Below are positions 1 through 14,971 of a DNA stretch of 64,000 nucleotides, one piece after another. Numbering within the stretch: the stretch's first letter is position 1; every line of letters starts with the position of its first letter. Under the pieces are notes generated by a model. That model saw only the letters and a program-made list of their open reading frames with translations. It made no database searches and was not told where the DNA came from. The translations under genes and the position numbers were made by a program. Source of the stretch: Rhizobium lusitanum (GTDB lineage Bacteria; Pseudomonadota; Alphaproteobacteria; Rhizobiales; Rhizobiaceae). Location: positions 1-64,000 of the forward strand of contig NZ_CP050305.1 of assembly GCF_014189535.1 (NCBI RefSeq), in the 5' to 3' direction.

Positions 1-988
1 GGCTCTCGTCCATTGCGTATGTTTTCGACAGATAGGGGATGCCGAGATGGCCATACGCGATGGAAAGCTGCTGTGCGGCCGCCTTCGCATCCATGCCGGC
101 AATTCTCTGGCTGTAGATGACCGCGACAAGCCCGCTTCTGTCTGCGCCTGCCTGACAGTGGATAAGGATGGGCTTCGGGGCCGCGCGCAGGATATCGACT
201 AGTTGATCGGCCCTCTCGGGCGTCATGATTTTCCGCGCCGACATTTTGAAGTCGATGTGTTCGATGCCCAGGCGTTGAGCCGTATCGACTTCCTGATTGT
301 ACCAGTCTGATTTCCCGTTCTCGCCGCGCAAATTGACGATCGTGCGAATGCCGTTCTCGCGCACGTAAGTCTCGATCTGCGTCGGCGAAAGTTGCGCGGA
401 GCGATAAAGCTCGCCGGGGATGACGGCATGAAAATTGCCATCCCAGTGCAGCACGGCGAGATAGATGCCGAATGCCGCGGCCGGTGCGGCCAGCATTGCG
501 GTCAGCAGGCCGGCTAGTTTCGCTTTGCGTGATCGCGGCCAATGCCATCTTGTGTTCGCCTTCGCCGTCGGCGTAACAACGGGATCTTCCGTTCGACGGA
601 GAGCAGTGCCGACCGCTGCGGATGATCGACAGTCGATGCCAAGCACGGTCCTGATGCGGGAGGTCAGTTCGCCAAGGCCGAACGGCTTGACCAGATAATA
701 GACCGCGCCGAGCTGATGGCTCTTCTGCCTGTCGGCGACGTGATCGCCGGCGGAGATAATGATCGCGGATGTCGCGGGTGAGCGTGTCCGTAAACGCTCC
801 AGCAGTTCCAGCCCGCATCCGTCAGGCAAGCCAGGGTCGAGAAGGATCAAGGAATAGGAGGTCGTATCCATCGTACGCGTTGCCGCCTGGATATCGCCCA
901 CCCAGTCGATATCCCAGCCTTGGGCGGCGACGTGATCGCGCAAGGCATTCCCCAAGATCGCATCATCCTCGACCAATAGTATTCGCAC
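1..988 (-). CDS. Receiver domain fused to membrane-anchored dual-specificity phosphatase (3' end cut by window edge)
   Basis: I translated this by hand: one reading frame stays open from GTG 988 (GGGGA ribosome site upstream) to base 1, 329 residues. Residues 1-118 are a CheY-like receiver with the acidic pair D8/D9, phospho-acceptor D51 in LLDPGLPDG, S79 and K101 in LVKPF. A basic linker (RSRKAK, 152-157) and one hydrophobic helix (158-180) follow. Next comes a phosphatase domain with YRSAQ, INLRG-like and HCQAGADRSG motifs, catalytic C278 and R284. The usual DNA-binding output domain is absent. By the positive-inside rule the receiver would be cytoplasmic and the phosphatase outside the inner membrane; this is inference. 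A homologous locus at 13877-14971 carries the same parts as two genes. The substrate is unknown. Confidence 0.8.
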   Translation of the reverse strand, partial: MRILLVEDDAILGNALRDHVAAQGWDIDWVGDIQAATRTMDTTSYSLILLDPGLPDGCGLELLERLRTRSPATSAIIISAGDHVADRQKSHQLGAVYYLVKPFGLGELTSRIRTVLGIDCRSSAAVGTALRRTEDPVVTPTAKANTRWHWPRSRKAKLAGLLTAMLAAPAAAFGIYLAVLHWDGNFHAVIPGELYRSAQLSPTQIETYVRENGIRTIVNLRGENGKSDWYNQEVDTAQRLGIEHIDFKMSARKIMTPERADQLVDILRAAPKPILIHCQAGADRSGLVAVIYSQRIAGMDAKAAAQQLSIAYGHLGIPYLSKTYAMDES

Positions 989-1230
989 GTCTATCCCCAG
1001 CTCGCAGACCTGCGTGATCCATGTCGTTCTTTGCTGACATGCACCTGAATTAATTTTTTGAATTATATTATACTAAAGTAACTAAAGGCTTATCTTTGTG
1101 ATGTTGCGCGCAACCGGAGGACGGCTCACGAAAGATGCCGGGCATCAAGACAGCAGCGATCATCCGGGATCAGCAAAGCCCCCTCAGCTTATTGCGGCTC
1201 AAGAGACGATGCTGATCAAGGTAGGCTGTC

Positions 1231-1488
1231 CTACATCTGGGTATGGATGCTTGATACCGTCGCTCTGCCGGTTTTCGAGGTGAAGTAGTGGACCTTGACC
1301 TTCTCGCCAGCCCTGAAGCGTTCCACTTCGATCTGCTCCGGCAGTCTGAGCACTTTCCCGCTCATCAGCGTGATCGTGTCGGCTTTCCTGTCGACACTCT
1401 TGATCGTACCGGTAAGGCCCTGAGCAAGGGCCCCCGTCGACGATGCGACCGCAACGATGACTGCGGCGATGATGACTGATCTTTTCAT
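1231..1488 (-). CDS. Small secreted DUF1344-like protein
   Basis: This is an 85-residue protein starting MKRSVIIAAVIVAVASS with a clear signal peptide ending near ALAQ. The mature part (GTIKSVDRKADTITLMSGKVLRLPEQ) matches the rhizobial DUF1344 pattern: a short beta-rich periplasmic domain of unknown function. The start at 1488 is preferred over an in-frame start at 1569 because the signal peptide begins there and an AGGA lies 8 bases upstream. It reads in the same direction as the receiver-phosphatase gene but is separated from it by about 240 bases. Confidence 0.7.
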   Translation of the reverse strand: MKRSVIIAAVIVAVASSTGALAQGLTGTIKSVDRKADTITLMSGKVLRLPEQIEVERFRAGEKVKVHYFTSKTGRATVSSIHTQM

Positions 1489-1627
1489 CTTCTTGATCCT
1501 GTTCGAGTTGATGGTTTCAACAAGGACCTCACCGGTGTCAACGGCAAAGCCGGCACCTCGCGCGCTCAATCTTGATGGGCATGCCGAGGTGACCAGCCCA
1601 AGCTAAACGAGCTAATTCTCTGGCAGA

Positions 1628-1760
1628 TTGCCTGGATCATACGGATGCGTAACCCCGTAAGACCGGACGCGCGTCGTACAGCCGTCGACGACAGACAGCG
1701 GTCCGTTCTTCACCGTAATTCTGCATCGGTCGGATCAGAAATCTTGCTGTGAAGGAACAA
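1628..1760. repeat. Dispersed intergenic repeat, copy 1
   Basis: About 133 bases align with 29954-30088 in the same orientation. By eye about three quarters of positions are identical, with near-perfect blocks such as ATACGGATGCGTAACCCC and CAGCCGTCGACGACAG. Neither strand keeps a common reading frame in both copies, so it looks non-coding. It contains the palindrome GTCGAC inside a possible hairpin. The rest of the 1489-1947 gap shows nothing I recognise. Confidence 0.6.
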
Positions 1761-1947
1761 TAGCGACCCTCGCTCGCATAGGCCCGACCTTCGACATCTC
1801 CAACCTTACGAAATCGTATCCTGGCGGCAAGACCGTTGTAGGGGCACTGCGCTAGATCGCTAGCCCACCGGCAAGAACATATTGCCGGCTGATCGACCGG
1901 GCCGCCGGCCTCGACGATTGCCCTGCGACAAAACGAAGGAATCTCCG

Positions 1948-2211
1948 ATGAAAAAGCTTATCGCCGCCACGTTTATCACCGCCATCGCAAGCCTTGGATC
2001 CATCGTCCCCCAGGCCCATGCCGCAGCGGCCGCCCCTTGCGAGGATACGCTGAAGACCATGCGTGCCGCCAAGGCAACGGCCAAGCTCAGTGACGCCGAC
2101 ATGGCCAAGGTCAACGACCTCGAAGCCAAGGCGATCGAGCGCTGCAATGCCGACGACGATGCTCGCTCGGACAAGTTTCTGGCCGACGCGATGAAGATCA
2201 TGGGCAAATAA
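1948..2211 (+). CDS. Small secreted protein of unknown function
   Basis: The 87-residue product starts MKKLIAATFITAIASLGS with a signal peptide cleaved around AHA. The mature part is mostly helical and charged, with two cysteines (PCEDTL and ERCNADDD) that could form one disulfide in the periplasm. The start at 1948 has AAGGAA seven bases upstream; an earlier in-frame start at 1882 would bury the signal peptide. The next gene begins about 25 bases after its stop, so the two are probably cotranscribed. I do not recognise the family. Confidence 0.7.
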   Translation: MKKLIAATFITAIASLGSIVPQAHAAAAAPCEDTLKTMRAAKATAKLSDADMAKVNDLEAKAIERCNADDDARSDKFLADAMKIMGK

Positions 2212-2235
2212 ACCCCAGCGAACGGGAGACATCCT

Positions 2236-3024
2236 ATGACCCATATTCAAATGGACCCAGTTCAACGGAACCGGGTACCCGAGGTCACCGTCGAATTCTG
2301 GTTGATCAAGCTTATGGCCGTGACCATGGGTGAGACGGCGGCGGACTATCTTGCGGTCAATCTCGGTCTCGGCCTGACCGCCACATCCCTGCTGATGACC
2401 GCGATACTGGTCGTTGCCCTGGTGCTTCAGTTCGCGCAAAGGCGCTATGTTCCACCTTATTATTGGGCCGCCGTGGTTCTGATCAGCATTGTCGGCACGC
2501 TGGTGACCGACAATCTTGTCGATAATTTCGGCGTCGCGCTCCAGACAACGGCCATCGGTTTCACCATCGCGCTCGCCGTGACTTTCGCGGTCTGGTACGC
2601 GGCCGAGACGACGCTGTCGATCCACTCCATCTTCACGACACCCAGGGAAGCCTTCTACTGGCTGACCATCCTTTTCACCTTCGCTCTCGGAACGGCGGTG
2701 GGTGACCTCGTGGCGGAAGTCTTCGCGCTCGGCTATCTCACCACCGGTCTCCTTTTCGGAGGCATCATCATCGTGATCGCGGTCGCCTATTATGTCTTCA
2801 AGCTGAACGCCATCCTGGCCTTCTGGCTTGCGTATATCTTGACCCGGCCACTCGGTGCCTCCTTCGGCGATCTGCTATCGCAGCCGCGGGAATATGGCGG
2901 ACTCGGTTTCGGCACGATCGTTACCAGCCTGCTCTTCCTGTCTACTATCATCTGTCTGGTGATCTACATGATCGCTGCTCAAGAACCTGATGATGAGGAA
3001 CTCGACGCGCACGGGGAGATCTGA
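2236..3024 (+). CDS. Multi-spanning membrane protein, COG4705 type
   Basis: This 262-residue, very hydrophobic protein has about eight predicted membrane segments. It has an internal repeat: each half carries an acidic membrane motif (GETAADYL near residue 34, GTAVGDLVAEV near 155, and GASFGDLL near 210). That layout is typical of the uncharacterised COG4705 membrane-protein family of proteobacteria. The C-terminal tail is acidic and cytoplasmic-looking. An ACGGGAGA ribosome site precedes the ATG. It follows the small secreted gene closely. Substrate and role are unknown; conserved membrane acids suggest transport, which is inference. Confidence 0.7.
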   Translation: MTHIQMDPVQRNRVPEVTVEFWLIKLMAVTMGETAADYLAVNLGLGLTATSLLMTAILVVALVLQFAQRRYVPPYYWAAVVLISIVGTLVTDNLVDNFGVALQTTAIGFTIALAVTFAVWYAAETTLSIHSIFTTPREAFYWLTILFTFALGTAVGDLVAEVFALGYLTTGLLFGGIIIVIAVAYYVFKLNAILAFWLAYILTRPLGASFGDLLSQPREYGGLGFGTIVTSLLFLSTIICLVIYMIAAQEPDDEELDAHGEI

Positions 3025-3411
3025 CGAGTCGCTCGGTTGTACGCTGTTGTCCCCTCGTAGCCCTGACAGCGTAAACGGGCATCCGTCACCCCCGCGAATT
3101 TATTCGCCGCGGTTTCAACGTAACTCAAGAGATGGATCAGACGCGTCAGCGCCTGTCTGGGTACCGGAAAAACGACCATGACCCGAAAGCCGGGCCTATC
3201 CGTTCCGTTCGAGCCGGGATGCCCCAGCGGGTAAAGTGGCTCGGCAACGGCAAAAAACGCGGCTTACGAAACCGTAAAGTTCCGGAAAAAAGCCGGCGAT
3301 GTTCACCCCATAAAAGCACGAGGCCCTGCCGCCGCCTTCATCGCCGCATCCGAGATGAGGAGGAAGCCGAGCCTGTGTAAGGAAAAATCGAGTGGTCGCG
3401 GAAAGTATATC
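3025..3411. other. Intergenic region, nothing recognised
   Basis: About 390 bases separate the COG4705-type gene from the glycosyltransferase. Short open frames on both strands overlap each other and show no ribosome sites or domain signatures. No convincing terminator or repeat was seen. Confidence 0.4.
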
Positions 3412-4257
3412 ATGAACGCTGACAGCCTTCGTCTGAACAGATCCGCCACCCTCGAAAACATTGCCCTCGAAAACCCTCCTAAAGAGATCCAGCTGGATTC
3501 AACCGGCCTTCGGCTGAAGATCTATCTCATCAATCTCGACCGCGCCGAGGATCGTCTCGCGTTTATGAGCGAGGAATTGTCCCGCGCAGGGCTGCTGTTC
3601 GAGCGGGTATCGGCGATAGACGGTCGTAATATCGCTTTCCCGATTCCAGAATTTGACGCGCAGGCATATCGCAGATGCCATGGAAGGCAGGCAAATCCAT
3701 CCGAAGTGGGTTGCTATCTCAGCCATATCGAGTGCGCGAGACGTTTCCTCGCCTCGGGCGAACCACATGCCCTCATTCTTGAAGACGACCTGACCTTTCC
3801 GGAGGATTTCGGCGATCTGCTGCGTGCCTCGCTGAACGCGGCGGCGACATGGGACATCCTGCGTCTCTCGACGGTCAACACCGGCCGAAAATATCCCTTT
3901 GTGGACATTACGCCGAGGCGGTCGCTTGCCGTCGCGCTGACACGGGAGAAGGGGTCCGGTGCCTACATCATCAACAGGCGTGCAGCCAGATGGATGGTCG
4001 AAAAACTGGTGCCGATGAGGCTGCCCTACGATATCGCCTATGACCTTGAGCATTTCGCCGGATTGCGAGCGGTTTTCGTCGTCCCGGCCCCGGTCGACCA
4101 GATGACCAATTTTCCAACGCAGATCCAGCAAGGGCGCCGGCAATATCGGCTGCCATGGTGGCGTCGCCTCAGTATCTATCCCTACCGTGCCTGGTTTGAG
4201 GCATCACGCTTTCTGTTTCGGGCAGGAATGCTGCTGCGCTTCAGGTTGGTGAAATGA
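3412..4257 (+). CDS. Glycosyltransferase family 25 (LPS-type)
   Basis: The 281-residue protein has the family-25 signature. It starts with LKIYLINLDRAEDRL, has the SEVGCYLSHIECAR block (S-E-x-G-C-x-x-S-H) and the acidic motif LILEDDLTFP, which binds metal and nucleotide sugar. These enzymes add sugars such as galactose to lipopolysaccharide cores. The start at 3412 has GGAAAG seven bases upstream. No other LPS gene is adjacent, but envelope glycosyltransferases occur 11 kb downstream. Donor and acceptor sugars cannot be read from sequence. Confidence 0.8.
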   Translation: MNADSLRLNRSATLENIALENPPKEIQLDSTGLRLKIYLINLDRAEDRLAFMSEELSRAGLLFERVSAIDGRNIAFPIPEFDAQAYRRCHGRQANPSEVGCYLSHIECARRFLASGEPHALILEDDLTFPEDFGDLLRASLNAAATWDILRLSTVNTGRKYPFVDITPRRSLAVALTREKGSGAYIINRRAARWMVEKLVPMRLPYDIAYDLEHFAGLRAVFVVPAPVDQMTNFPTQIQQGRRQYRLPWWRRLSIYPYRAWFEASRFLFRAGMLLRFRLVK

Positions 4258-4442
4258 CATTGCGATATTTACTCTTCTCGCAGTCGCCTGTCGCAATCAG
4301 AGGCCATGATGATTGGAGGAGCATCAAACCCTCTTGAATGCCGCAAGCCATGTTCGGCAACATCTCAACGCGATGCCGCAACATGAAAGACGTTTTGAAA
4401 TCATAACGATGGCCCTCATCGGTCAGGCAATGGAGAATGAAC

Positions 4443-5645
4443 ATGGACGGCCCGGATCCTGTAAAAACCGACACGACATCAGGTGGCGGTAAGAGTGCGT
4501 TGGGAGCCGTTGCCTGCATCGCGGTTGCCGGAGCAGCTGTCTTCTTCGCATTGCCCGCAAACAAAGGCCAATCCGCGCCGCAGGCTGCCTCGTCCGCTCC
4601 CGCATCGGTGCCGGTCGAAGCTGCATCCGTTTCGACACAGGATGTTCCGATCGAACGGTCCGGCCTCGGATATGTCACGCCGCTCACGGCGGTGGACGTG
4701 AAAGTCAGGGTCGATGGGCAATTGCAGAAGGTGCTTTTCACCGAAGGACAGAATGTCACGGCGGGCGACGTCATTGCCGAAATCGATCCCCGGCCCTATG
4801 AGGCAGCCATCGACCAGGCGCAGGCCGCCTATCAGAAGGATATCGCTCAGCTCAATGCCGCCAAGATCGACGAGGCGCGCGCCAAGAAGCTGACGACCAC
4901 GGGAAGCGGCACGACGCAAACCGCCGATACCGCCACGGCGCAAGTCGCTGTTATGGAGGCGACGGCCGCCGGAGAGCAGGCTGCGATTGAGACCGCCAAG
5001 CTGAACCTCAGCTTTGCCTCCGTCACCGCTCCGATCAGCGGCCGCGCAGGTCTGCGTCAGGCGGAGCAGGGCGCGATCGTCCACGCCAATGACGCCACCG
5101 GGATTGTTACCATCACGCAGATGCAGCCGATCGCGGTTCTTTTCTCCCTGCCGCAGGACGAGTTGCCCGATCTGGTTTCCGGGCAGGCTCAGAGCGCTCT
5201 TTCCGTTGCGGTGGACAGCCGGGACGGCGTCCGCCATCTGGCCGACGGCAAATTGTCCGTCATCGACAGCCAGGTCGATACGAGCACCGGCATGGTCAAG
5301 CTCAAGGCTGTCTTTTCCAATGACGACCTGGCGCTCTGGCCCGGAGAGCTGGTGAGCGCCCGTATTATTCTAAGGACCGATCGAGGCTCGACGGTCGTGC
5401 CATCCGCCGCCATCCAGAATGGCCAGACAGGTCCCTATGTCTTCATAGTGAAGCCGGACAGCACGGTCGCTACGGTCTCGGTGAACACCGGCCCAGTTGC
5501 CGCCGGCGTGACGACTCTTCTATCCGGCCCGAAGCCGGGAGATAACGTGGTGATCTCGGGCCAGTCGAGATTGACGGACGGCACGCTGGTCAAGGCGCGA
5601 CCTTCTACGCCGCATGTGGCTGCCGCTGGAGATCAGGGCCAATGA
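4443..5645 (+). CDS. RND efflux periplasmic adaptor (MdtA/AcrA-like)
   Basis: This membrane-fusion protein has an N-terminal anchor (ALGAVACIAVAGAAVFFAL), a lipoyl half-motif (VDVKVRVDGQLQKVLFTEGQNV), an alpha-hairpin region (residues ~110-170), a second lipoyl half (APISGRAGLRQAE) and beta-barrel and membrane-proximal domains. It would bridge the inner-membrane pump to an outer-membrane channel; no TolC-like gene is in the window. ATGs occur at 4437 and 4443; GGAG lies seven bases before 4443. Its stop overlaps the permease start by four bases, so the two are translationally coupled. Confidence 0.88.
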   Translation: MDGPDPVKTDTTSGGGKSALGAVACIAVAGAAVFFALPANKGQSAPQAASSAPASVPVEAASVSTQDVPIERSGLGYVTPLTAVDVKVRVDGQLQKVLFTEGQNVTAGDVIAEIDPRPYEAAIDQAQAAYQKDIAQLNAAKIDEARAKKLTTTGSGTTQTADTATAQVAVMEATAAGEQAAIETAKLNLSFASVTAPISGRAGLRQAEQGAIVHANDATGIVTITQMQPIAVLFSLPQDELPDLVSGQAQSALSVAVDSRDGVRHLADGKLSVIDSQVDTSTGMVKLKAVFSNDDLALWPGELVSARIILRTDRGSTVVPSAAIQNGQTGPYVFIVKPDSTVATVSVNTGPVAAGVTTLLSGPKPGDNVVISGQSRLTDGTLVKARPSTPHVAAAGDQGQ

Positions 5646-8600
5646 GCCTTTCAGAGATCTTCATCCGGCGTAGGATCGGAACCTGCCTGCTTGCGCTCGG
5701 GGTTCTGCTTCTTGGCACCGTCGCCTATATGATGCTGCCGGTCGCATCGTTGCCGCAGGTCGATTTCCCGACGATCCAGATCGAGACCACGCTTCCCGGC
5801 GCCAGCGCCGTCACCATGGCGACATCGGTCGCAACGCCACTGGAAAATCAGCTTTCGACAATTGCCGGCGTGTCGCAGATGACCTCGGTTAGTTCCTCCA
5901 GCCGCACCAACGTCACCATGCAGTTCGACTTGAACCGCAACATAGACAGCGCTGCGCAGGATGTGCAGGCAGCAATCAGCGCGGCCAGCGGCCAGCTTCC
6001 AAAGGATCTCCCAAGCGCGCCAGCCTTTCATAAGGCCAATCCGGCGGAGGCGACGGTCCTAACCCTGGCCTTGACCTCGGACAGATTACCACTGACCGAA
6101 CTCGATCATTATGCCGAAGACATCATCGCGCAGCAGATCTCCCAGATGGACGGTGTCGGGCTGGTGGATTTCCATGGGCCGGAACGCCCGGCGATCCGGG
6201 TGCGCCTCGACCCCGACAAAGTGGCCTCGCGTGACCTTACCATGGAAGACGTCCGCACGGCGATCGGACAGCAGACCTTGAATGCGCCGAAAGGATCGGT
6301 CACCGGTGACGGGCGGACGATGGTGCTCGACGCCACGGATCAGATCGTTGACGTGCCAGCCTACAAGTCGATGGTCGTCGCCTATCGCAACGGCGCGCCG
6401 ATCTTTGTGCAGGATATCGGCACCGTACTGACGGCGGCGCTGGACTCGAACCAGGCCGCCTGGCTGCAGATGAACCGATCCGTGATGATCGACGTCCACA
6501 AGATGGCGGGTTCAAACGTCCTGGATACGATCCGGACCATCAAGGATCGGCTTCCCATGCTGCAAGCCTCTCTTCCGGCCGGCATCAAGCTCTCGGTCGT
6601 GGGGGATCGCACGCAGATCATCGATGCCTCTATCCGCGACGTCCAGATCACCATGCTGATCACGATCACGCTGGTCGTCATGGTCATTTTCTGCTTCTTG
6701 CGAAACCTGTGGGCCACACTCATTCCGGCCGTCACCATTCCGCTTTCCCTGGTCGGAACCTTCGCCGTCATGTACCTGCTGGGCTATAGCCTGGATAACC
6801 TGTCGTTGATGGGGTTGACCATCGCCGTCGGCTTCGTCGTGGACGATGCGATCGTCGTGATCGAAAATATCGTCCGCCACATCGAAGAGGGAAAGCCCAA
6901 ACTGCAGGCCGCCATCGAGGGCGCCGGTGAGGTCAGCTTCACCATCGTCTCGATGACGGTGTCGCTGATCGCCGTCTTCATTCCCATTCTGCTGATGGGC
7001 GGCATCGTCGGGCGCCTCTTCCGCGAATTCGCGGTGACGGTAAGCGTCGCCATCCTGATTTCCGGCGTGGTGTCGCTTACCGTCACGCCGATGCTCTGTG
7101 CCTGGCTCATCAAGCATGAGCACGGGCGGCCGCGGGGGCCGCCTTTATCGCTGGTCCGAAGCGTTTTTCGATGCCTGCACGCGAGGCTATGGCTATGGCC
7201 TCGATATCGTCCTGCGTTACCGCCTGATCACACTGGCCATCACCATCGCGACGCTCGGAGCCACATTGTGGCTCTATGTGGTGGTTCCGAAGGGCTTCCT
7301 GCCGCAACAGGATACCGGCTTCATTCAGGGCCAGGCGCAGGCGGCAACGGATATCTCGTTCGACAATATGTCCGAGCGCATGCAGGCACTTGGAAAGATC
7401 GTGATGGCCGACCCCGCCGTCGACAATACCGCCTATTGGATCAACCCCAGCCCGTCGGCCAGCGTCGGCCAGGTGCAGATCAATCTCAAGCCGTTCGGCG
7501 AGAGAAGCCCGGCGCCTGAGGTGATGGCACGATTGAAGAAGGCGGTCTCCGGTCTCGAAGGCCTGACATTCGGCATGCAGGTCCGCCAGGACATTCAGGT
7601 CGGCGGGCGATCCGCCGCCTCTCAGTATCAGTACACGCTGCAGGGGCCAGACCCCGCCGAACTCGACAAATGGGCAGCGGTGATGACGAAGGCGCTGGCG
7701 GCCCTGCCGCAGCTCCAGGATGTCATATCGGACAAGCAGAAGGCTGCAAGCAGCCTCACACTGGACATCGATCGCGCGACGGCGGCGCGACTGGGCATCA
7801 GCATCGAAGCGATCGACGAAACGCTCTACGACGCCTTCGGGCAGAGGCAGGTGGCAACGCTGTTTACGCAGGTCAGCCAATATCATGTGGTGATGGAGCT
7901 CGACCCGCGGTTTGCACTGTCGCCGGAGGCGCTCGGCCATCTCTACGTCAGGTCGGCCACCACACAGAAGCTGGTGCCCCTCAGCCTGCTGGGTTCGCTG
8001 AAGACCGGCGTCATGCCCGTCTCGATCAACCATCAGGGCTCGATGCCCGCAACGACGCTGTCGTTCAACCTGAAACCGGGCATTGCCCTCAGCGACGCGG
8101 TAACGGCCATCCATGGCGCCGAGCAGACCGCCGGCATGCCGATCACGATCATTGGCTCCTTCCAGGGGACGGCGCAGGCCTTCCAGGATTCGCTGAGCAG
8201 CCAGCCGTGGCTCATTCTGGCCGCCGTGATCGCCGTCTACATCGTTCTCGGCGTACTCTATGAGAGCGCGATTCATCCGTTGACGATCATATCGACACTG
8301 CCGTCCGCCGGTCTCGGCGCACTTGTGGCGCTGAGACTATGCGGTCAGGATCTTTCGATCATGGGCATGATCGGCATCATTCTATTGATCGGCATCGTCA
8401 AGAAGAATGCGATCATGATGATCGACTTCGCGCTGGAGGCGGAACGGAACCAGGGATTGCCGCCGGTGGAAGCCATCCGCCAGGCCTGTCTGCTTCGTTT
8501 CCGGCCGATCATGATGACGACCCTTGCAGCGCTTCTCGGCGCCTTGCCGCTGGCGCTTGGGACGGGAGCGGGTGCCGAGCTTCGGGTTCCGCTCGGGATC

Positions 8601-8768
8601 GCGATCGTCGGTGGATTGATCGTGTCGCAGGTCCTTACCCTCTTTACCACCCCCGTCGTCTATCTGGCGCTCAACAGTCTGACGCGCTCGCGCACCTACG
8701 CCGTTTCGCATGCTTATGAGCTGGTTCGTCGTGCCAACATGGGCCGTGAGGCGGCAAATTCGAGATAG
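5642..8768 (+). pseudogene. RND multidrug efflux permease (HAE1/MdtB-like), interrupted by a +1 frameshift
   Basis: Two overlapping frames together make one RND permease of about 1,040 residues. The first (from 5642) covers the N-terminal membrane helix, the porter domain, and the helices with VGFVVDDAIVVIENI and TPMLCAWL. The second (through 8768) resumes at GRLYRWSEAFFDA and covers the second porter half and helices with MGIIGIILLIGIVKKNAIM-like sequence. The shift lies at a run of five G at 7134-7138: removing one G restores HGRPRGRLYRW, matching the family. Either the pump is inactivated, or this is a sequencing indel. The adaptor lies upstream and a two-component pair downstream. Confidence 0.85.
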
Positions 8769-9038
8769 ATTGGCCATTTGCCGAGGGAATAGCGGGACTT
8801 TACAGATGGGTAAGGTTCCGGCAAGGTTGTGGCAAAGGCTTGATCTTAAACCTCAAATCGCACCCGGCCGCCGAAGCTAGGGTATCGGAGGCCGGCTGGA
8901 ATATGTTGAATATCAAGAGCATATCGTCGGTTGCGTCTTCTATCCTGAATTACCAGGACTTGCTAAACTGGATGGTGACGGACGGGCTCGCGTCAAAGCG
9001 ATGTCATTTCACTGCCGGCATGGGGAATGGATTATTTC

Positions 9039-9716
9039 ATGCGCATATTGCTCATAGAGGACGACATCAAAACGGCGGATTTCATCGCGCGCGGCCTGCG
9101 TGAAGCGGGTCATGTATGTGATGTATTGCCGGACGGGCAGGACGGACTTTTCCATGCCATCCGCGAGACCTATGATGTTTATGTCGTCGACCGGATGCTG
9201 CCGGGTCTCGACGGCCTGTCGATCGTGCGCTCGATGCGTGCGGCTGGCGTCAAGACGCCGACGCTTTTCCTGAGCGCGATTGCCGGCATCGATGACCGGG
9301 TGGAGGGCCTTGAGGCAGGAGCCGACGACTACCTCGTCAAGCCGTTCGCGTTCTCCGAACTTCTGGCGCGCGTCAACGCGCTTGCCCGCCGCCCGCCCGC
9401 GGTCGCCGAGAAGACCGTGCTGCAGGTCGCCGACCTGACGATGGACATGATGAAACGCCGCGTCACCAGGGCAGGGGTGGAGATCGAACTGCAACCGCGC
9501 GAATTTACGCTTCTGGAGGTTCTCGCCCGCAACGAGGGCAGGGTTCTCACCCGCACGATGCTCCTTGAGCGCGTCTGGGATTTCCATTTCGATCCGAAGA
9601 CCAGCGTGGTCGAAACGCATATCAGCCGGCTGCGCGGAAAGATCGACAGGCCCTTTGACGTTCAGCTCCTTCATACGATCAGAAACACCGGTTATTCGTT
9701 GCATGCGCCGCGATAA
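9039..9716 (+). CDS. OmpR/PhoB-family response regulator
   Basis: The protein has 225 residues: a receiver domain (MRILLIEDD, phospho-acceptor D51 in VVDRMLPG, K in YLVKPFAF) and a C-terminal winged helix (ELQPREFTLLEVLARNEGRVLTR ... VETHISRLRGKID ... TIRNTGYSL). It is closest in style to metal and envelope-stress regulators such as CusR. I chose ATG 9039 because it gives the canonical receiver start; ATG 9027 is possible. The kinase gene overlaps its 3' end by 14 bases. It probably controls the upstream pump or the downstream OmpV-like gene. Confidence 0.88.
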   Translation: MRILLIEDDIKTADFIARGLREAGHVCDVLPDGQDGLFHAIRETYDVYVVDRMLPGLDGLSIVRSMRAAGVKTPTLFLSAIAGIDDRVEGLEAGADDYLVKPFAFSELLARVNALARRPPAVAEKTVLQVADLTMDMMKRRVTRAGVEIELQPREFTLLEVLARNEGRVLTRTMLLERVWDFHFDPKTSVVETHISRLRGKIDRPFDVQLLHTIRNTGYSLHAPR

Positions 9717-11064
9717 CATTCTGCGCAGCTCATCGTTTCGCCTGGCGCTGATCTTCTCGCTGATGTTCATCAGCGCCTTCATCATCACGGGCATGATCGT
9801 CTATCAGCTTGTTCGATGGGAACTCCAGCAGCGCCAGGACCAGACCATTCAGGAGACCTTTGCGGTGATCGCCGCGGCCTATGGCGATCAGGACATCACG
9901 GACCTGCTTGATACGGTGCAGACCTATATCAAGGCAGCCGGCGATCGCCAGCGCGTGTTCTCACTCGTCAATCCCTCGGGAAAGGTTCTTGCCGGCAATA
10001 TCCCTGATCTCAAGTTTCCACAGGGTTGGAGCAACATCGATGGCGAAGAGATGCAACTGCCCGACGACCTGCAATACCGGATTTTCTCAGGCGCCGTTGA
10101 CGGAAATCGCCTGACTGTCGGTCTCAGTCGACGGGAAACCGAGAACATCGAAGCAATCATGCTGCAAAGCTTTGGCTGGGCCTCCATCATCGTTTTGCTG
10201 CTGGCGATTTCCGGCGGCGGATTGATTGCGCTGCGCGTGCAACGGCGTTTCGGCGCCGTGCGAAGCACGATGGAGCATGTGGCGCGAGGAAACCTGAATG
10301 CCCGGATTCCGATTGTCGGACGTGGCGATGACGTCGATCTGCTGTCCCACGACATCAACGACGCGCTTGCGCGCCTCGCCGCCACGGTCGAAGGCATGCG
10401 GCAGGTCAGCGCCGATATAGCCCACGACCTGAAATCCCCACTCAACCGCCTCAAAATGACCATCGACGAGGCGCTGGCCAAGCAGGAGAGCGGCCAGGCG
10501 GTCATCGCTGAGCTCGAGGCCGCAAGCGCCGAGGCGGACCGCATCAACGAAACTTTCGAGGCGCTGTTGCGGATTGCCCAGATCGAGGCCGGGGCCCGCA
10601 AATCCAGGTTCGACAGCCTCGACCTCGGCAATATCTTGCAATCCCTTGCCGACATCTATTCCAGTGTCGCCGAGGATAACGGCCAGCAACTCAAAAGCAG
10701 CCTGGACCAGCCCGGCGCGATTATTTTGGGCGACCGCGAACTGCTGACCCAGATGTATGCCAACCTCATAGAGAACGCGATTCGACACTGTCCGGAAGGA
10801 ACCGATATCGTGATCCGGAGCGAGACGAATGCCGAAATGATCACGACATATGTGGAGGACAACGGTCCCGGCATCCCCGAACAGGAGCACGGCAATGTCT
10901 TCCGGCGTCTCTACAGGCTGGAGAAAAGCCGCACTTCTCCCGGCAGCGGGCTTGGGCTCAGCCTGGTAAAGGCTATCGCCGACCTTCATAGCGCGAGCAT
11001 TTTCATGGCGAACGTCGAACCTGGGCTGCAGGTCAAGATCGTATTTGCGAGGGTTGATCGATGA
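9703..11064 (+). CDS. Sensor histidine kinase paired with the upstream regulator
   Basis: This inner-membrane kinase has 453 residues: a first membrane helix (residues ~11-33), a periplasmic sensor of about 115 residues, a second helix (~148-170), a HAMP linker, and a dimerisation domain with phospho-acceptor H241 in SADIAHDLKSPLNRL. The ATPase domain has the N box (ANLIENAIRHC), G1 box (VEDNGPGIP) and G2 box (SPGSGLGLSLVKAI). The start at 9703 overlaps the regulator, and its stop overlaps the next gene by ATGA, so regulator, kinase and outer-membrane protein form an operon. The signal is unknown. Confidence 0.88.
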   Translation: MRRDNILRSSSFRLALIFSLMFISAFIITGMIVYQLVRWELQQRQDQTIQETFAVIAAAYGDQDITDLLDTVQTYIKAAGDRQRVFSLVNPSGKVLAGNIPDLKFPQGWSNIDGEEMQLPDDLQYRIFSGAVDGNRLTVGLSRRETENIEAIMLQSFGWASIIVLLLAISGGGLIALRVQRRFGAVRSTMEHVARGNLNARIPIVGRGDDVDLLSHDINDALARLAATVEGMRQVSADIAHDLKSPLNRLKMTIDEALAKQESGQAVIAELEAASAEADRINETFEALLRIAQIEAGARKSRFDSLDLGNILQSLADIYSSVAEDNGQQLKSSLDQPGAIILGDRELLTQMYANLIENAIRHCPEGTDIVIRSETNAEMITTYVEDNGPGIPEQEHGNVFRRLYRLEKSRTSPGSGLGLSLVKAIADLHSASIFMANVEPGLQVKIVFARVDR

Positions 11065-11927
11065 AGGCTGACATGCGCTGCAACGTATTCTCCATAAGCC
11101 GACCCATGTGTCTAAACCTGCACTTGGACGCGACGGTCTTCTTGCTGGCATTTACCGCCCTGCCGACGACACCCGTCATGGCGCAGCAGGCGGCTAAATC
11201 TCCTTCGGGCACCTGGGTCGTGACGCTGGGCACTACGGTGGAGTATGGGCCGAGCTACGAAGGCTCGAAGCGCTATACCTTCGGTGCCCTTCCGTCTTTC
11301 GACTTTTATCGCCTCGGTGAGGCCCCTGAATACAGCGCTCCGGACGACAATTTCGACTATACGCTCTTCGACCTCGGCGGCGTCGAAATCGGTCCCGTCG
11401 TCGGCTTGAGGGACGATCGCCTGGACCTCAACAATCTGCATATACAGAGCCAGCGCAGGGTGCGCTGGAATTTCGATGCCGGCGGCTTCGCACAATATTG
11501 GCTGATGGAAAATCAGCTTCGGTTGCGGACGGAAGTACGCCAGTCCCTTTGGGGCGGCGACGGTCTGGTCGCCGATCTGGCGCTTGATTGGTTTCAACCC
11601 GTTGGCGACAAATTGGTCCTGTCGGCGGGGCCACGCATGTCACTGGCAGACACCACCTACATGCGCAGCAATTTTGGAATCTCGGCGGGTCAAGCCGCAA
11701 GAAACGATCATGTCAGCGCCTTCGACGCAGCCGGCGGCCTGAAATCGGTCGGCTTCACGGTGGCGGCGACCTACACGATCACGCCCCAATGGAGCGTGCA
11801 GGTCTATGAGAAATATAACCGTCTGGTGGGCGACGCCGCCGACAGCCCGATCACGTCGCGGTTCGGCTCACCCGACCAGAATATGATCGGCTTTACCCTC
11901 AACAGAACCTTCAACGTCGATTTTTGA
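11061..11927 (+). CDS. MipA/OmpV-family outer-membrane protein
   Basis: This 288-residue beta-barrel has an N-terminal export signal (LDATVFLLAFTALPTTPVMA), then alternating amphipathic strands including VTLGTTVEYGPSYEGSKRY, a pattern typical of MipA/OmpV proteins, and ends in an aromatic residue (TFNVDF) as outer-membrane barrels do. The ATG overlaps the kinase stop by four bases. The real signal peptide may begin at a downstream ATG (11070 or 11106). Family members are often regulated by the two-component system beside them, which suggests this is a target of the adjacent pair. Confidence 0.8.
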   Translation: MKADMRCNVFSISRPMCLNLHLDATVFLLAFTALPTTPVMAQQAAKSPSGTWVVTLGTTVEYGPSYEGSKRYTFGALPSFDFYRLGEAPEYSAPDDNFDYTLFDLGGVEIGPVVGLRDDRLDLNNLHIQSQRRVRWNFDAGGFAQYWLMENQLRLRTEVRQSLWGGDGLVADLALDWFQPVGDKLVLSAGPRMSLADTTYMRSNFGISAGQAARNDHVSAFDAAGGLKSVGFTVAATYTITPQWSVQVYEKYNRLVGDAADSPITSRFGSPDQNMIGFTLNRTFNVDF

Positions 11928-12396
11928 GGCACTGCGCGCTTCATGATCGGCGATGTCGTCATGTGGAATACAGGAATAGCGATAATGGCGCTGGCCGAGT
12001 CTGCCGGTGAAGAGTGTGATGCACCGGCGACCCTTCGCGGCGTCGAAGGCATTGAGTTATTGCAGGTCGCATCGCCTGTATCTGAAACGACCTGCAGGAC
12101 TGCAATGGCATCGATCCCGACCGCAATCGACGTCGTCGGACATCATCGATGTCTCTGGAAAGTAAACCGAGGTCATGTCGAATGAGAAGCTGTCAGCTGG
12201 TGCGGAAAGGAGCCAGGTTGGCATATTCGAACGAACTGCGCCCTTTGGCGGTGGCGAAACGAAATATCGCACCGTTGGATGTACCATTGAAAGCTGACTG
12301 AAAGGTTGTCCGCGCTAGCCTCGCCAAGCTTCGAGGAGGAAGCTCATGCCGATGTGGCGAACAGCCGCCACCGGCATATAACGGGAGGAGACATCA
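11928..12396. other. Intergenic region upstream of the binding-protein gene
   Basis: About 470 bases without a credible gene; the short open frames lack ribosome sites. The strong GGAGGAG site at its right end belongs to the next gene. No clear promoter or operator was identified. Confidence 0.4.
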
Positions 12397-13410
12397 ATGC
12401 GTTCGACAAACACTCTATTTTATTCTGCGGCCCTTTCCCTTGCGATGACAGCGGTCTCGCTCGGGGCCGCGGCGGCGCAAGCGGCCGACAAGATTTCCAT
12501 CATGGTCGGCGGCTATGAAAAGCAGATCTATCTGCCGGCCAAGCTTGCTGAATCACTTGGCTACTTCAAGGATGAGGGGCTCACCGTCGAGCTTCTCAAC
12601 GAGCCCGCCGGCGTGGACGCGGAAAACGAAATGCTTGCCGGTGCGGTTCAGGGTGTCGTCGGTTTTTACGATCATTGCATCGATCTCCAAGGCAAGGGTA
12701 AATTCGTCGAGTCCGTCGTGCAGTTCAGCCAGGCGCCGGGCGAAGTCGAGCTGGTGTCCAGCAAGCATCCCGAGATTAAGTCGCCCGCCGATTTCAAGGG
12801 TAAGAGCCTTGGCGTTACCGGTCTCGGTTCGTCGACCAACTTCCTGACGCAATATCTGGCGGTCAAAGACGGCTTGAAGCTAAGCGATTTCACTTCGGTT
12901 CCGGTCGGCGCCGGCCAGACTTTCATCGCCGCCTTGCAGCAGGATGCAATCCAGGCCGGGATGACCACCGAACCGACCATCTCGCACCTGCTGAAAACCG
13001 GCGAAGCCAAGGTTCTTATCGATATGCGTACGATGGCCGGCACCAAGGCCGTCCTTGGCGGCACCTATCCGGCCGCCTCTCTCTATATGCAGACCTCGTG
13101 GATCAATGATCACAAGGCGGAGACCCAGAAGCTTGCCAACGCCTTCGTCAAGACGCTGCATTTCATCAACACCCATTCTGCCGCCGAAATCGCCGACAAG
13201 ATGCCGAAGGATTTCTACATCGGCGACAAGGAAGGCTACGTGAAAGCGCTCGAAAACGGCAAGGCGATGTTCACGCCCGATGGCGTCATGCCAGAAGACG
13301 GTCCGAAGACCGTTCTTGCGGTTCTTTCGGCGTTTTCGAAGAACGTTCAGGGTAAGTCGATTGACCTGTCGAAAACCTACACGACGGCGTTCGTCAAGGC
13401 CGCCAAATAA
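12397..13410 (+). CDS. ABC transporter substrate-binding protein, NitT/TauT (NMT1-like) family
   Basis: The protein has 337 residues: a signal peptide ending near AQAAD, then a type-2 periplasmic binding fold. Conserved blocks are YLPAKLAESLGYFKDEGL, the central KGKSLGVTGLGSSTNF and the AGMTTEPT region. Such proteins capture nitrate, taurine, sulfonates, pyrimidine precursors or other small organics for an ABC importer. No permease or ATPase gene lies nearby, so it is an orphan here and the ligand cannot be inferred. GGAGGAG stands seven bases before the ATG, and a hairpin terminator follows. Confidence 0.85.
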   Translation: MRSTNTLFYSAALSLAMTAVSLGAAAAQAADKISIMVGGYEKQIYLPAKLAESLGYFKDEGLTVELLNEPAGVDAENEMLAGAVQGVVGFYDHCIDLQGKGKFVESVVQFSQAPGEVELVSSKHPEIKSPADFKGKSLGVTGLGSSTNFLTQYLAVKDGLKLSDFTSVPVGAGQTFIAALQQDAIQAGMTTEPTISHLLKTGEAKVLIDMRTMAGTKAVLGGTYPAASLYMQTSWINDHKAETQKLANAFVKTLHFINTHSAAEIADKMPKDFYIGDKEGYVKALENGKAMFTPDGVMPEDGPKTVLAVLSAFSKNVQGKSIDLSKTYTTAFVKAAK

Positions 13411-13424
13411 GCCGGCTGTGCAAA

Positions 13425-13452
13425 GCCGCTTCCGGCAAAGACCGGAGGCGGC
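13425..13452 (+). terminator. Hairpin terminator after the binding-protein gene
   Basis: An 11-bp stem (GCCGCTTCCGG pairing with CCGGAGGCGGC, one T-G wobble) with a six-base loop starts 15 bases after the stop codon. The T tract is weak (CTTCTT). Confidence 0.6.
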
Positions 13453-13876
13453 CTTCTTGGCAAATTGTCCGCCTTAACTGCACCGGCAAAGTCCTGGCCC
13501 ATTGTAGTAAGCTTTGGCCCGCGAAATTCCCAATCTCGCGAAAATAATTTCTTTATACGGTCATTTGTTCGGGTCGGCGTTTCGAGCCGTTCTATAGGTG
13601 CGGCTGGCGAGCCCTCCAGATTTTTTGGACGGCGCCTTTACTCGTCCTCGAGTGCTGAGACGACCTGCCGCAACCCATTCGCGGTGGCAATGAAGCAGGG
13701 ATGGACCTGGCTTTCTCGTGACCGTCGGATTTCCTGTCTGGTAAATCCAGAAAATGTTCCAATCGATCGGTGGAAGGAGCGCGCGCTAGGAACAATCAAG
13801 GGCGCTTGCGCTCAGCCAAGTTCATGTGCCTGTCAGTAAACTGGCGCATTGGTGTCCGCATGAATGGAGAACTAGG
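13453..13876. other. Intergenic region upstream of the receiver gene
   Basis: About 420 bases with overlapping short frames on both strands, none with a ribosome site or a recognisable domain. It must contain the promoter for the receiver/phosphatase locus; I could not place it with confidence. Confidence 0.35.
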
Positions 13877-14263
13877 TTGCGGATACTGCTCGTGGAAGAC
13901 AATATTCTGTTAGGTGATGCTCTTCAGGAGCATCTGTCGCTGATGGGATGGGATGTGACTTGGGTCACCGGTTATCGGCTTGGGGCGGATACTTTATGCC
14001 GGGTGTCTTTCGATGTCGTTTGCCTTGACCGGCGGCTTCCGGACGGCGATGGCTTCGACCTGCTGCGCGGCGGACTGATCGCGTGTCCAACCATCATTAT
14101 GTCGGCCTTCGACCAACTGTCCGATCGGGTCGAGGCGAAACGATTGGGGGCCGCTGACTATCTGACAAAGCCCTTTCGTCTGGAGGAGTTGACGCATCGG
14201 ATCAGTCTGTTGACGGGCGCAAATATCGACAGTGCGCGCAATCAACATACGTCTCGTCCGTAG
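13877..14263 (+). CDS. Stand-alone receiver domain protein, first half of a split receiver-phosphatase locus
   Basis: This 128-residue CheY-like receiver starts at TTG 13877 (GGAGA six bases upstream). Its first residues LRILLVEDNILLGDAL align with VRILLVEDDAILGNAL of the protein at 1-988. The acceptor is D51 in CLDRRLPDGDG, with the conserved S in IIMSAF and K in YLTKPF. No output domain is present. The frame ends at an amber codon (14261-14263), and the phosphatase gene continues in the same frame from the very next base. It has no kinase neighbour. Confidence 0.78.
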   Translation: MRILLVEDNILLGDALQEHLSLMGWDVTWVTGYRLGADTLCRVSFDVVCLDRRLPDGDGFDLLRGGLIACPTIIMSAFDQLSDRVEAKRLGAADYLTKPFRLEELTHRISLLTGANIDSARNQHTSRP

Positions 14264-14971
14264 ATGCTGACAAACATTTTGCATTTTTCCGCAACCATTG
14301 TTCAGGCGCTTGTCAGGCACTTCCTGCATGTGATGGAAACATCACAAAGGAACGGCTCTCGACCAATGACTGTATTTCGAAAAGTGGTTCTCGCTACAAT
14401 CGGCGGCATCGGAGTTTTAGGCGCGAGTTGCGCAGCCTATGCTGGCTTTTTGCAGGTCACCGGTAACTTTCATTCGGTGATCGATGGCCAGTTTTACCGC
14501 TCGGCTCAACCAACATCCGAGGAACTCGCCTCTTATGTACGGACACACGGAATCAAGACCGTCATCAATCTGCGAGGAACATATCCAGGTACTGCGTGGT
14601 ATGACGATGAAGTCACAACGGCTCGGAGCCTCGGCATAACGCATATCGATTTTGGCATGTCCGCCTCGAAAGCTATTTCGCCTGAACAGGCGGAGCGACT
14701 CGTCGAGTTGATGGCCTCCGTACCGAAGCCCATCCTTATTCACTGCCTCTCGGGTGCTGACCGTAGCGGTTTGGCCGCCGCGTTGTATGTCAGGAAAATT
14801 GCGGGGCTGGATGAAGCTCGGGCCGAAGGCCAACTATCCTTCTATTATGGGCATGTGGGCATACCCGTGGTTTCAACTGCCTACGCCATGGATAGGAGTT
14901 GGGAGGATATCGAGGCACAGGACAGAAAACAGGCGCAGGCTGAGCTCGTAAACGGTGCCACCGTGCGATAG
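14264..14971 (+). CDS. Membrane-anchored dual-specificity phosphatase, second half of the split locus
   Basis: The conserved part starts near residue 35 (MTVFRKVV): one hydrophobic helix (LATIGGIGVLGASCAAYAGFL), then a phosphatase domain with YRSAQ, VINLRGTYPG, WYDDEV, and the active site HCLSGADRSG with nucleophile C161. ATG 14264 directly follows the receiver's amber stop in the same frame, but alternative starts at 14333 and 14366 are possible and none has a good ribosome site, which suggests translational coupling. The catalytic domain is probably periplasmic. The substrate could be protein, lipid or sugar phosphate. The next gene is an ArnT-like transferase. Confidence 0.75.
   Translation: MLTNILHFSATIVQALVRHFLHVMETSQRNGSRPMTVFRKVVLATIGGIGVLGASCAAYAGFLQVTGNFHSVIDGQFYRSAQPTSEELASYVRTHGIKTVINLRGTYPGTAWYDDEVTTARSLGITHIDFGMSASKAISPEQAERLVELMASVPKPILIHCLSGADRSGLAAALYVRKIAGLDEARAEGQLSFYYGHVGIPVVSTAYAMDRSWEDIEAQDRKQAQAELVNGATVR

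What the first reader, a model, noticed from the sequence alone, without database searches (positions are those of the whole stretch)
1..988. Receiver domain fused across a membrane helix to a dual-specificity phosphatase
One open frame joins a complete CheY-like receiver (D51, S79, K101) to a signal-anchor helix and a Cys-based phosphatase (C278, R284). I know of no described response regulator with this output. By charge rules the phosphatase would face the periplasm while the receiver is cytoplasmic, which would be phospho-signalling across the inner membrane with a phosphatase as effector.
Basis: partly seen in the sequence, partly recalled or inferred. Interest (0 to 1): 0.75.

Follow-up and report, generated by a model that had tools for sequence, protein, structure and literature searches.

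The report
Receiver-driven phosphatase spanning the membrane
One soil-bacterium gene joins the on/off switch domain of a two-component signalling system to a phosphatase that is predicted to sit on the far side of the inner membrane, which would let a signal inside the cell control an enzyme outside it; in related bacteria the same two parts are separate, often neighbouring, genes.

Summary
Confirmed. Window 988..2 (-) is one open frame: a PmrA-like receiver (1-117), a disordered linker, one predicted anchor helix (154-182) and a Cys-phosphatase (184-) with an intact HCX5R loop. It is no sequencing accident: an uninterrupted 93%-identical copy lies on another contig, and 14 further near-full-length homologues (65-93%) were found. 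Receiver and phosphatase are under purifying selection, the linker much less. No stop, and no in-frame start between codon 115 and ATG165. Charge (5 K+R before, 0 after the helix) and a single cysteine predict a periplasmic phosphatase; the top-ranked solved fold is periplasmic TpbA. The receiver nests among single-domain receivers, most found beside phosphatase or eptA genes: two neighbours probably fused. A second, probably independent fusion occurs in another genus with eptA directly upstream. I propose that an EptA/PmrA-type envelope circuit uses the receiver to recruit or cluster a periplasmic phosphatase; kinase, substrate and coupling are untested. Against: 3 of 19 clade members lost the receiver link but kept the phosphatase; the fused gene's own neighbours in this genome lack eptA; and the window copy stops at the contig edge and may lack its native tail.

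The parts
2..988 (-). fused gene: receiver - linker - anchor helix - dual-specificity phosphatase (329 codons held, 3' end off the contig)
638..988 (-). receiver domain, residues 1-117, PmrA-like
836..838 (-). phospho-acceptor D51
   Evidence: 15 of 15 fused rows
530..637 (-). linker, residues 118-153, variable in length, predicted disordered
443..529 (-). predicted membrane anchor helix, residues 154-182, K+R before it, none in the 15 residues after
2..439 (-). phosphatase domain, residues 184-329, predicted periplasmic
134..160 (-). catalytic loop, residues 277-285 (HCQAGADRS; C278, R284)
   Evidence: C278 and R284 in 15 of 15 fused rows
13826..14263 (+). split relative, part 1: single-domain receiver
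14264..14971 (+). split relative, part 2: phosphatase with its own N-terminal hydrophobic segment
14995..17061 (+). PMT_2 glycosyltransferase beside the split pair
   Evidence: PF13231 160 bits
17304..18488 (+). GT2 glycosyltransferase with GtrA/DPMS membrane domain beside the split pair
   Evidence: PF00535, PF04138
9027..9716 (+). OmpR-type response regulator, candidate partner circuit
9565..11064 (+). histidine kinase ORF (HAMP, HisKA, HATPase_c; true start probably later), candidate kinase

Best explanation
One open frame joins a complete PmrA-like receiver, by a variable linker and a predicted inner-membrane anchor helix, to a Cys-based dual-specificity phosphatase that is predicted to lie in the periplasm; a neighbouring histidine kinase would phosphorylate the receiver, and the phosphorylated receiver would likely recruit or cluster the phosphatase on a phosphorylated envelope target such as lipid A or a periplasmic protein domain. 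Shown by sequence: the joined frame, its conservation, purifying selection on both domains, an intact catalytic loop and phospho-acceptor site. Inferred from trees: this receiver descends from single-domain receivers, most of which here neighbour separate phosphatase or eptA genes, so two neighbours were probably fused. Predicted: cytoplasmic N-terminus, periplasmic C-terminus. Untested: which kinase, which substrate, and coupling by proximity or dimerisation rather than by a stiff rod; the last is inferred from a linker that is predicted disordered, varies in length and is poorly conserved. The phosphatase would then act after translation, as a counterweight to the transcriptional and EptA arms of an envelope-stress circuit.
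For: Uninterrupted fused frames in 4 of 148 genus genomes (5 copies) and 14 database proteins at 65-93% identity. dN/dS over 15 pairs of six genomic copies: receiver 0.08-0.24, phosphatase 0.08-0.23, linker 0.28-0.89 with two pairs undefined. Catalytic and phospho-acceptor residues kept. 3-5 K+R before and 0 after the helix in 18 of 18 fused rows; exactly one Cys in 189 of the 196 domains that matched the motif, of 210 proteins. TpbA top-ranked fold, tied within 1 Z with others. Receiver tree: the fused group lies inside a clade of single-domain receivers and split-pair receivers, 97/94. RR-kinase-receiver-phosphatase-PMT_2-GT2-PMT_2 in G110 and G089:C6. Second fused group: eptA directly upstream on the same strand and an RR/kinase pair next door, in both genomes seen. 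Of 20 phosphatase-only loci against 20 shifted windows: single-domain receiver 11 v 1, EptA 12 v 0, RR plus kinase 7 v 1.
Against: No phosphorylation, activity, topology or substrate data. 3 of 19 clade members lost the link to the receiver but kept the phosphatase. One fused row, P0008, has lost K101 and two acid-pocket residues. In the window's genome the fused gene's neighbours include no eptA, and G111 has neither RR nor eptA in 20 kb. RR genes alone were hardly enriched: 7 of 20 v 4 of 20. A disordered linker gives no obvious path for a signal through one helix. The window copy may be truncated.
Confidence: 0.5

Rival explanations
1. The phosphatase is the working part and the receiver merely tethers it near a kinase or soaks up phosphoryl groups, without controlling it.
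For: Receiver link lost in 3 of 19 clade members with the phosphatase kept; many more phosphatase-only relatives; disordered linker; P0008 lacks K101.
Against: Receiver dN/dS 0.08-0.24, about that of the phosphatase; D51 in 15 of 15 rows; fusion probably arose twice; single-domain receivers lie near the unfused phosphatases in 11 of 20 loci.
Confidence: 0.25
2. Outside-in: the periplasmic phosphatase domain senses or processes a phosphorylated ligand and thereby changes how the receiver competes for kinase phosphoryl groups.
For: Topology would fit the ToxR/CadC pattern of cytoplasmic domain, helix, periplasmic input (recalled, not searched); RR/kinase pairs lie nearby in several loci.
Against: Catalytic residues are invariant in 15 of 15 fused rows, which a pure sensor would not need; no direct evidence.
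Confidence: 0.1
3. Two proteins are made in some lineages: a receiver, and a phosphatase from an internal start, so that the long frame is only partly a fusion protein.
For: G046 and G012 have a Shine-Dalgarno-like stretch before GTG156; G012 has a stop codon in the linker just upstream of it.
Against: The window copy has no in-frame start between GTG115 and ATG165 inside the helix, and the C1 copy none before ATG169.
Confidence: 0.1
4. The C2 copy in this window is a decaying duplicate; only the C1 copy is functional.
For: C2:1-13453 duplicates a C1 segment; 3' end missing or replaced; an RND permease in the segment is broken in C2 and open in C1; Y at residue 97 where 12 of 15 rows have D.
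Against: C2-C1 dN/dS 0.17 (receiver) and 0.10 (phosphatase): no relaxed selection in the part held, averaged over both copies.
Confidence: 0.35

Closest known systems
TpbA (PA3885), periplasmic dual-specificity phosphatase of Pseudomonas aeruginosa (PMC4409338, passages read)
   Different: TpbA is exported with an N-terminal signal peptide and the passages mention no receiver; about 20% identity; here an anchor helix follows a cytoplasmic receiver.
Receiver-PP2C-type regulators, e.g. PA3346 (PMC12189002, passages read) and REC-PP2C proteins (PMC5847659, passages read)
   Same: A receiver joined to a phosphatase as output.
   Different: Ser/Thr (PP2C-type) phosphatase, no membrane helix (recalled for PA3346); unrelated catalytic chemistry.
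Single-domain receivers beside eptA and phosphatase genes in Rhizobium
   Same: Nearest receivers by tree and among the nearest by identity (57% for the L093 receiver).
   Different: Not joined to the phosphatase; no described function was looked up for them.
LapD (PMC3032553, passages read)
   Same: A cytoplasmic input would control a periplasmic domain of the same protein (inside-out).
   Different: c-di-GMP, HAMP, GGDEF-EAL; periplasmic part binds a protease and is not an enzyme.
ToxR/CadC-type membrane regulators (recalled)
   Same: Cytoplasmic N-terminal OmpR-related domain, one helix, periplasmic C-terminal domain.
   Different: Their cytoplasmic part is the DNA-binding half, not the receiver; their periplasmic part senses.

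Membership tests
Response regulator (receiver domain) | PF00072 over its cut-off | tested here: met
   71.3 bits against 30.2
Response regulator (receiver domain) | phospho-acceptor Asp, Ser/Thr and Lys | tested here: met
   D51, S79 in 15 of 15 fused rows, K101 in 14 of 15
Response regulator (receiver domain) | phosphorylation by a histidine kinase | not testable with these tools
   needs biochemistry
OmpR/PhoB-type transcription factor | DNA-binding Trans_reg_C domain | tested here: not met
   not among the families listed at E up to 0.1
Cys-based dual-specificity phosphatase superfamily | HCX5R loop and conserved Asp | tested here: met
   H277, C278, R284, D246 in 15 of 15 fused rows; that D246 is the general acid is inferred
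Cys-based dual-specificity phosphatase superfamily | phosphatase Pfam model over cut-off | tested here: met
   PTP-NADK 43.0/27, Y_phosphatase3 40.7/22.2; but DSPc 30.1/33.5 below
Cys-based dual-specificity phosphatase superfamily | phosphatase activity | not testable with these tools
   needs an assay
TpbA-like periplasmic phosphatase | TpbA fold | tested here: met
TpbA-like periplasmic phosphatase | export by a cleaved signal peptide | tested here: inconclusive
   hydrophobic helix predicted; export side predicted from charge only; no cleavage predictor was run
REC-PP2C regulators | PP2C/SpoIIE domain | tested here: not met
   not among the families listed at E up to 0.1
LapD-type inside-out receptors | HAMP-GGDEF-EAL | tested here: not met
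   not among the families listed at E up to 0.1

The most novel reading that the evidence does not exclude
A transmembrane response regulator whose output is an enzyme outside the cytoplasm: kinase-driven phosphorylation of a cytoplasmic receiver switches a periplasmic Cys-phosphatase by recruitment or clustering, giving an EptA-type envelope circuit a fast, transcription-free arm, invented at least twice by fusing a single-domain receiver to a neighbouring phosphatase.
Probability: 0.38. Interest if true: 0.82.

Novelty: new variant of a known kind. Interest (0 to 1): 0.62.

Why it matters
Response regulators are usually thought of as cytoplasmic proteins acting on DNA, second messengers or cytoplasmic partners (recalled). 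A receiver joined to an exported enzyme would extend two-component output to the periplasm. It also gives a handle on the single-domain receivers found near eptA and phosphatase genes in rhizobia: the fusion suggests that receiver and membrane phosphatase work together. It makes the substrate of this rhizobial phosphatase family, and a post-translational arm of envelope remodelling, directly testable.

Tried and rejected
Sequencing error or two-gene artefact: rejected for the window frame, since C1, G053, G029 and G046 show the same uninterrupted frame. Internal start: none between GTG115 and ATG165 in the window, none before ATG169 in C1; not excluded in G046 and G012. One common receiver-phosphatase ancestor for all fused and split groups: on phosphatase domains (71 rows, five long-branched rows dropped) the AU test gives p 0.017 for fused + second fused + split, 0.35 for fused + second fused, 0.18 for fused + split; on receivers fused + second fused gives p 0.055, and fused + second fused + single-domain + split gives 0.275. 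The groups were named after the trees were seen. Two fusions are likely, not proven. An earlier receiver tree grouped fused, split and second fused rows against nine RRs; it lacked the single-domain receivers and was replaced, for which I left out P0003, P0005 and P0008. The whole-model structure comparison listed only receivers, so the phosphatase was folded alone. Named genome contigs: no relative confirmed. Plasmid records: 6 matched the first 8 kb, none over the gene itself. Order draw: 397 genomes, E <= 1e-50, three other genomes matched, phosphatase only. Papers: 'membrane-bound response regulator' 0, 'membrane-anchored response regulator' 0; the 2006 Galperin classification is not held, so the best published census of receiver outputs was not checked. 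Receiver dimer-face residues (R87, D97, E107, R111; numbering recalled from PhoB) are mostly kept, with exceptions in up to 3 of 15 rows; the argument does not rest on them.

Full report
What is there. The window is bases 1-64000 of contig C2 (203,484 bp) of a 6.9-Mb, five-contig genome; the named close relatives in the protein search are Rhizobium. On the minus strand, 988..2 is one open frame of 329 codons from a GTG, running off the contig edge. Pfam finds a full receiver (71.3 bits, cut-off 30.2) at 3-113 and phosphatase models over their cut-offs from about residue 188 (PTP-NADK 43.0/27, Y_phosphatase3 40.7/22.2); DSPc is just below its cut-off (30.1/33.5). AlphaFold2 on a 64-row alignment (mean pLDDT 83.4) gives a receiver at 1-117, disorder around 122-150, one helix at 154-182 and a phosphatase from 187.

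Is it real. An uninterrupted copy, 93% identical, lies on contig C1 of the same genome; further uninterrupted frames occur in G053, G029 and G046, so in 4 of 148 genus genomes, G000 included. The protein search gave 14 receiver-phosphatase proteins of 65-93% identity and 95-100% coverage; the other 106 of the best 120 listed (of 721 at E up to 1e-5) carry no receiver in their Pfam list, P0015 and P0016 among them. Over the 15 pairs of six genomic copies (G012 among them), dN/dS is 0.08-0.24 in the receiver, 0.08-0.23 in the phosphatase, 0.28-0.89 in the linker (undefined in two pairs) and 0.19-1.05 in the helix segment. In 15 fused rows D51, S79, D246, H277, C278, D283 and R284 are invariant and K101 is in 14.

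Against indispensability. I count 19 members of this clade: the C2 and C1 copies, G053 (=P0007), G029 with the nearly identical P0013, G046 (=P0014), G012, G111 (=P0016), P0001-P0006, P0008-P0012 and P0015 (sequences). Three of 19 no longer join the parts: G012 has a stop codon in the linker, G111 a frame break early in the receiver, P0015 an in-frame loss of most of the receiver; each keeps the phosphatase. A sequencing error in G111 or G012 cannot be excluded. P0008 has the full length but lacks K101 and two acid-pocket residues. G046 and G012 carry a Shine-Dalgarno-like stretch before GTG156; the window and C1 copies have no such start. P0003 and P0005 begin a few residues late in the database rows.

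The window copy itself. C2:1-13453 is a duplicate of a C1 segment (95.8% over 12.2 kb, 92.1% over 1.1 kb) and the homology runs up to base 1. If C2 is circular, the protein ends ...MDESLRLSKLPAAFQ, unlike ...MDESLQNLQKHFSQYD in C1; the C1 3' end matches C2 only at bases 1-108. Whether C2 is circular is not known. The C2 segment also has an RND permease in two overlapping frames that is one 1041-aa frame in C1. The C2 copy may be the decaying one; the C1 copy is complete (345 aa).

Origin. A second fused group sits in another genus of the family (G380, G252; 46 and 43% identity, no stops); its protein search gave three such proteins (P0121-P0123; 100, 83, 74% to the query). The fused phosphatases of the two groups are 56% identical to each other but 66 and 68% to the best of 52 sampled phosphatase-only proteins. 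In the receiver tree the window's group (100/99) lies within a clade of single-domain and split-pair receivers (97/94), with the longer, DNA-binding-length regulators and the second group outside. One clade for both fused groups is not firmly rejected (AU p 0.055 on receivers, 0.35 on phosphatases). Two fusions are likely.

Setting. Split pairs, a receiver gene directly followed by a phosphatase gene, lie in this very window (13826-14971), in G091, in G110 and twice in G089. In G110 and G089:C6 the order is RR-kinase-receiver-phosphatase-PMT_2-GT2-PMT_2; in G091 and G089:C20 no RR/kinase pair was seen in the stretch held. In the second fused group eptA (EptA_B_N and Sulfatase) is directly upstream on the same strand and an RR/kinase pair lies next door. 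In G029, G046 and G012 the gene ends a row of two ABC ATPases and a MacB/FtsX permease, divergent from an RR/kinase pair with DedA-like and PAP2 genes beyond. On two large contigs (G000:C5, G029:C1) a single-domain receiver lies divergent from an eptA homologue; in G000:C5 a PAP2 gene is on its other side, while the matching G029 ORF gave no Pfam hit. I then took 20 phosphatase-only loci (chosen by me, nearly all from the best-scoring hits; two cut by contig ends) and 20 shifted windows, from the same genomes except one: single-domain receiver 11 of 20 against 1 of 20, EptA 12 against 0, RR plus kinase 7 against 1, RR alone 7 against 4, at least one of receiver/RR/kinase/EptA 18 against 4. Fisher p for the first three and the last: 0.001, 0.00005, 0.04, 0.00002; the loci are related, so these are too small. 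In G000 itself the fused gene's neighbours are an RND pump, an RR/kinase pair and MipA, not eptA, and G111 has neither RR nor eptA in 20 kb.

Mechanism. The best reading is that the fusion hard-wires a receiver to a membrane phosphatase with which it already worked. A kinase of such a locus would phosphorylate D51; the receiver would then gather, pair or bring the phosphatase to its partner. A disordered, variable linker makes stiff coupling unlikely. The substrate is open: lipid A or polyprenyl phosphates are suggested by EptA, PAP2, PMT_2 and GT2 neighbours; a periplasmic protein domain is suggested by TpbA, which acts on TpbB (PMC4409338, passages). A Rhizobium tropici study lists eptA among genes reported in acid response elsewhere and describes an acid-sensitive mutant in an RR/kinase operon; the word phosphatase does not occur in its main text (PMC5936775, passages).

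Known or new. A receiver with a Ser/Thr phosphatase output is described (PA3346; PMC12189002, passages), REC-PP2C combinations are listed (PMC5847659, passages), and inside-out control of a periplasmic domain is described for LapD (PMC3032553, passages). A review of rhizobial phosphorylation names tyrosine phosphatases once and dual specificity not at all (PMC7020829, passages). Nine paper searches listed no paper on a receiver joined to a Cys-phosphatase or to an exported enzyme; I saw listings and the six papers' passages only, and most subscription papers are not held, so this is weak. I rate it a new variant of a known kind.

Noticed in passing
window 1-13453 and G000:C1 (L032 2934-16307): A 13.5-kb segment, fused gene included, is present twice in the genome on two contigs at 92-96% DNA identity.
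   Followed up: partly
window 5642-8768: RND permease lies in two overlapping frames in C2 (625 and 556 aa) but is one 1041-aa frame in the C1 duplicate.
   Followed up: no
L001 5489-8657 (G000:C2 near its other end): Three consecutive ORFs that look by eye like tyrosine recombinases (no family search run) lie 1.3 kb from the contig end, not far from where the fused gene would lose its native C-terminus if C2 is circular.
   Followed up: no
L084-L103: Phosphatase-eptA clusters, some with two phosphatase genes flanking eptA plus a single-domain receiver (e.g. L084, L085, L086, L088), recur across Rhizobium.
   Followed up: partly
L035, L036, L037: The fused (or in G012 split) gene ends a row of an ORF without Pfam hit, two ABC ATPases and an FtsX/MacB permease, divergent from an RR/kinase pair.
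   Followed up: partly
L070 / L102 (G252:C9): A phosphatase-only gene diverges from a response regulator of DNA-binding length and a kinase, with eptA and a single-domain receiver nearby.
   Followed up: no
G000:C5:1244097-1244441 (L083 7032-7460): Single-domain receiver between a PAP2 gene and a divergent eptA.
   Followed up: partly
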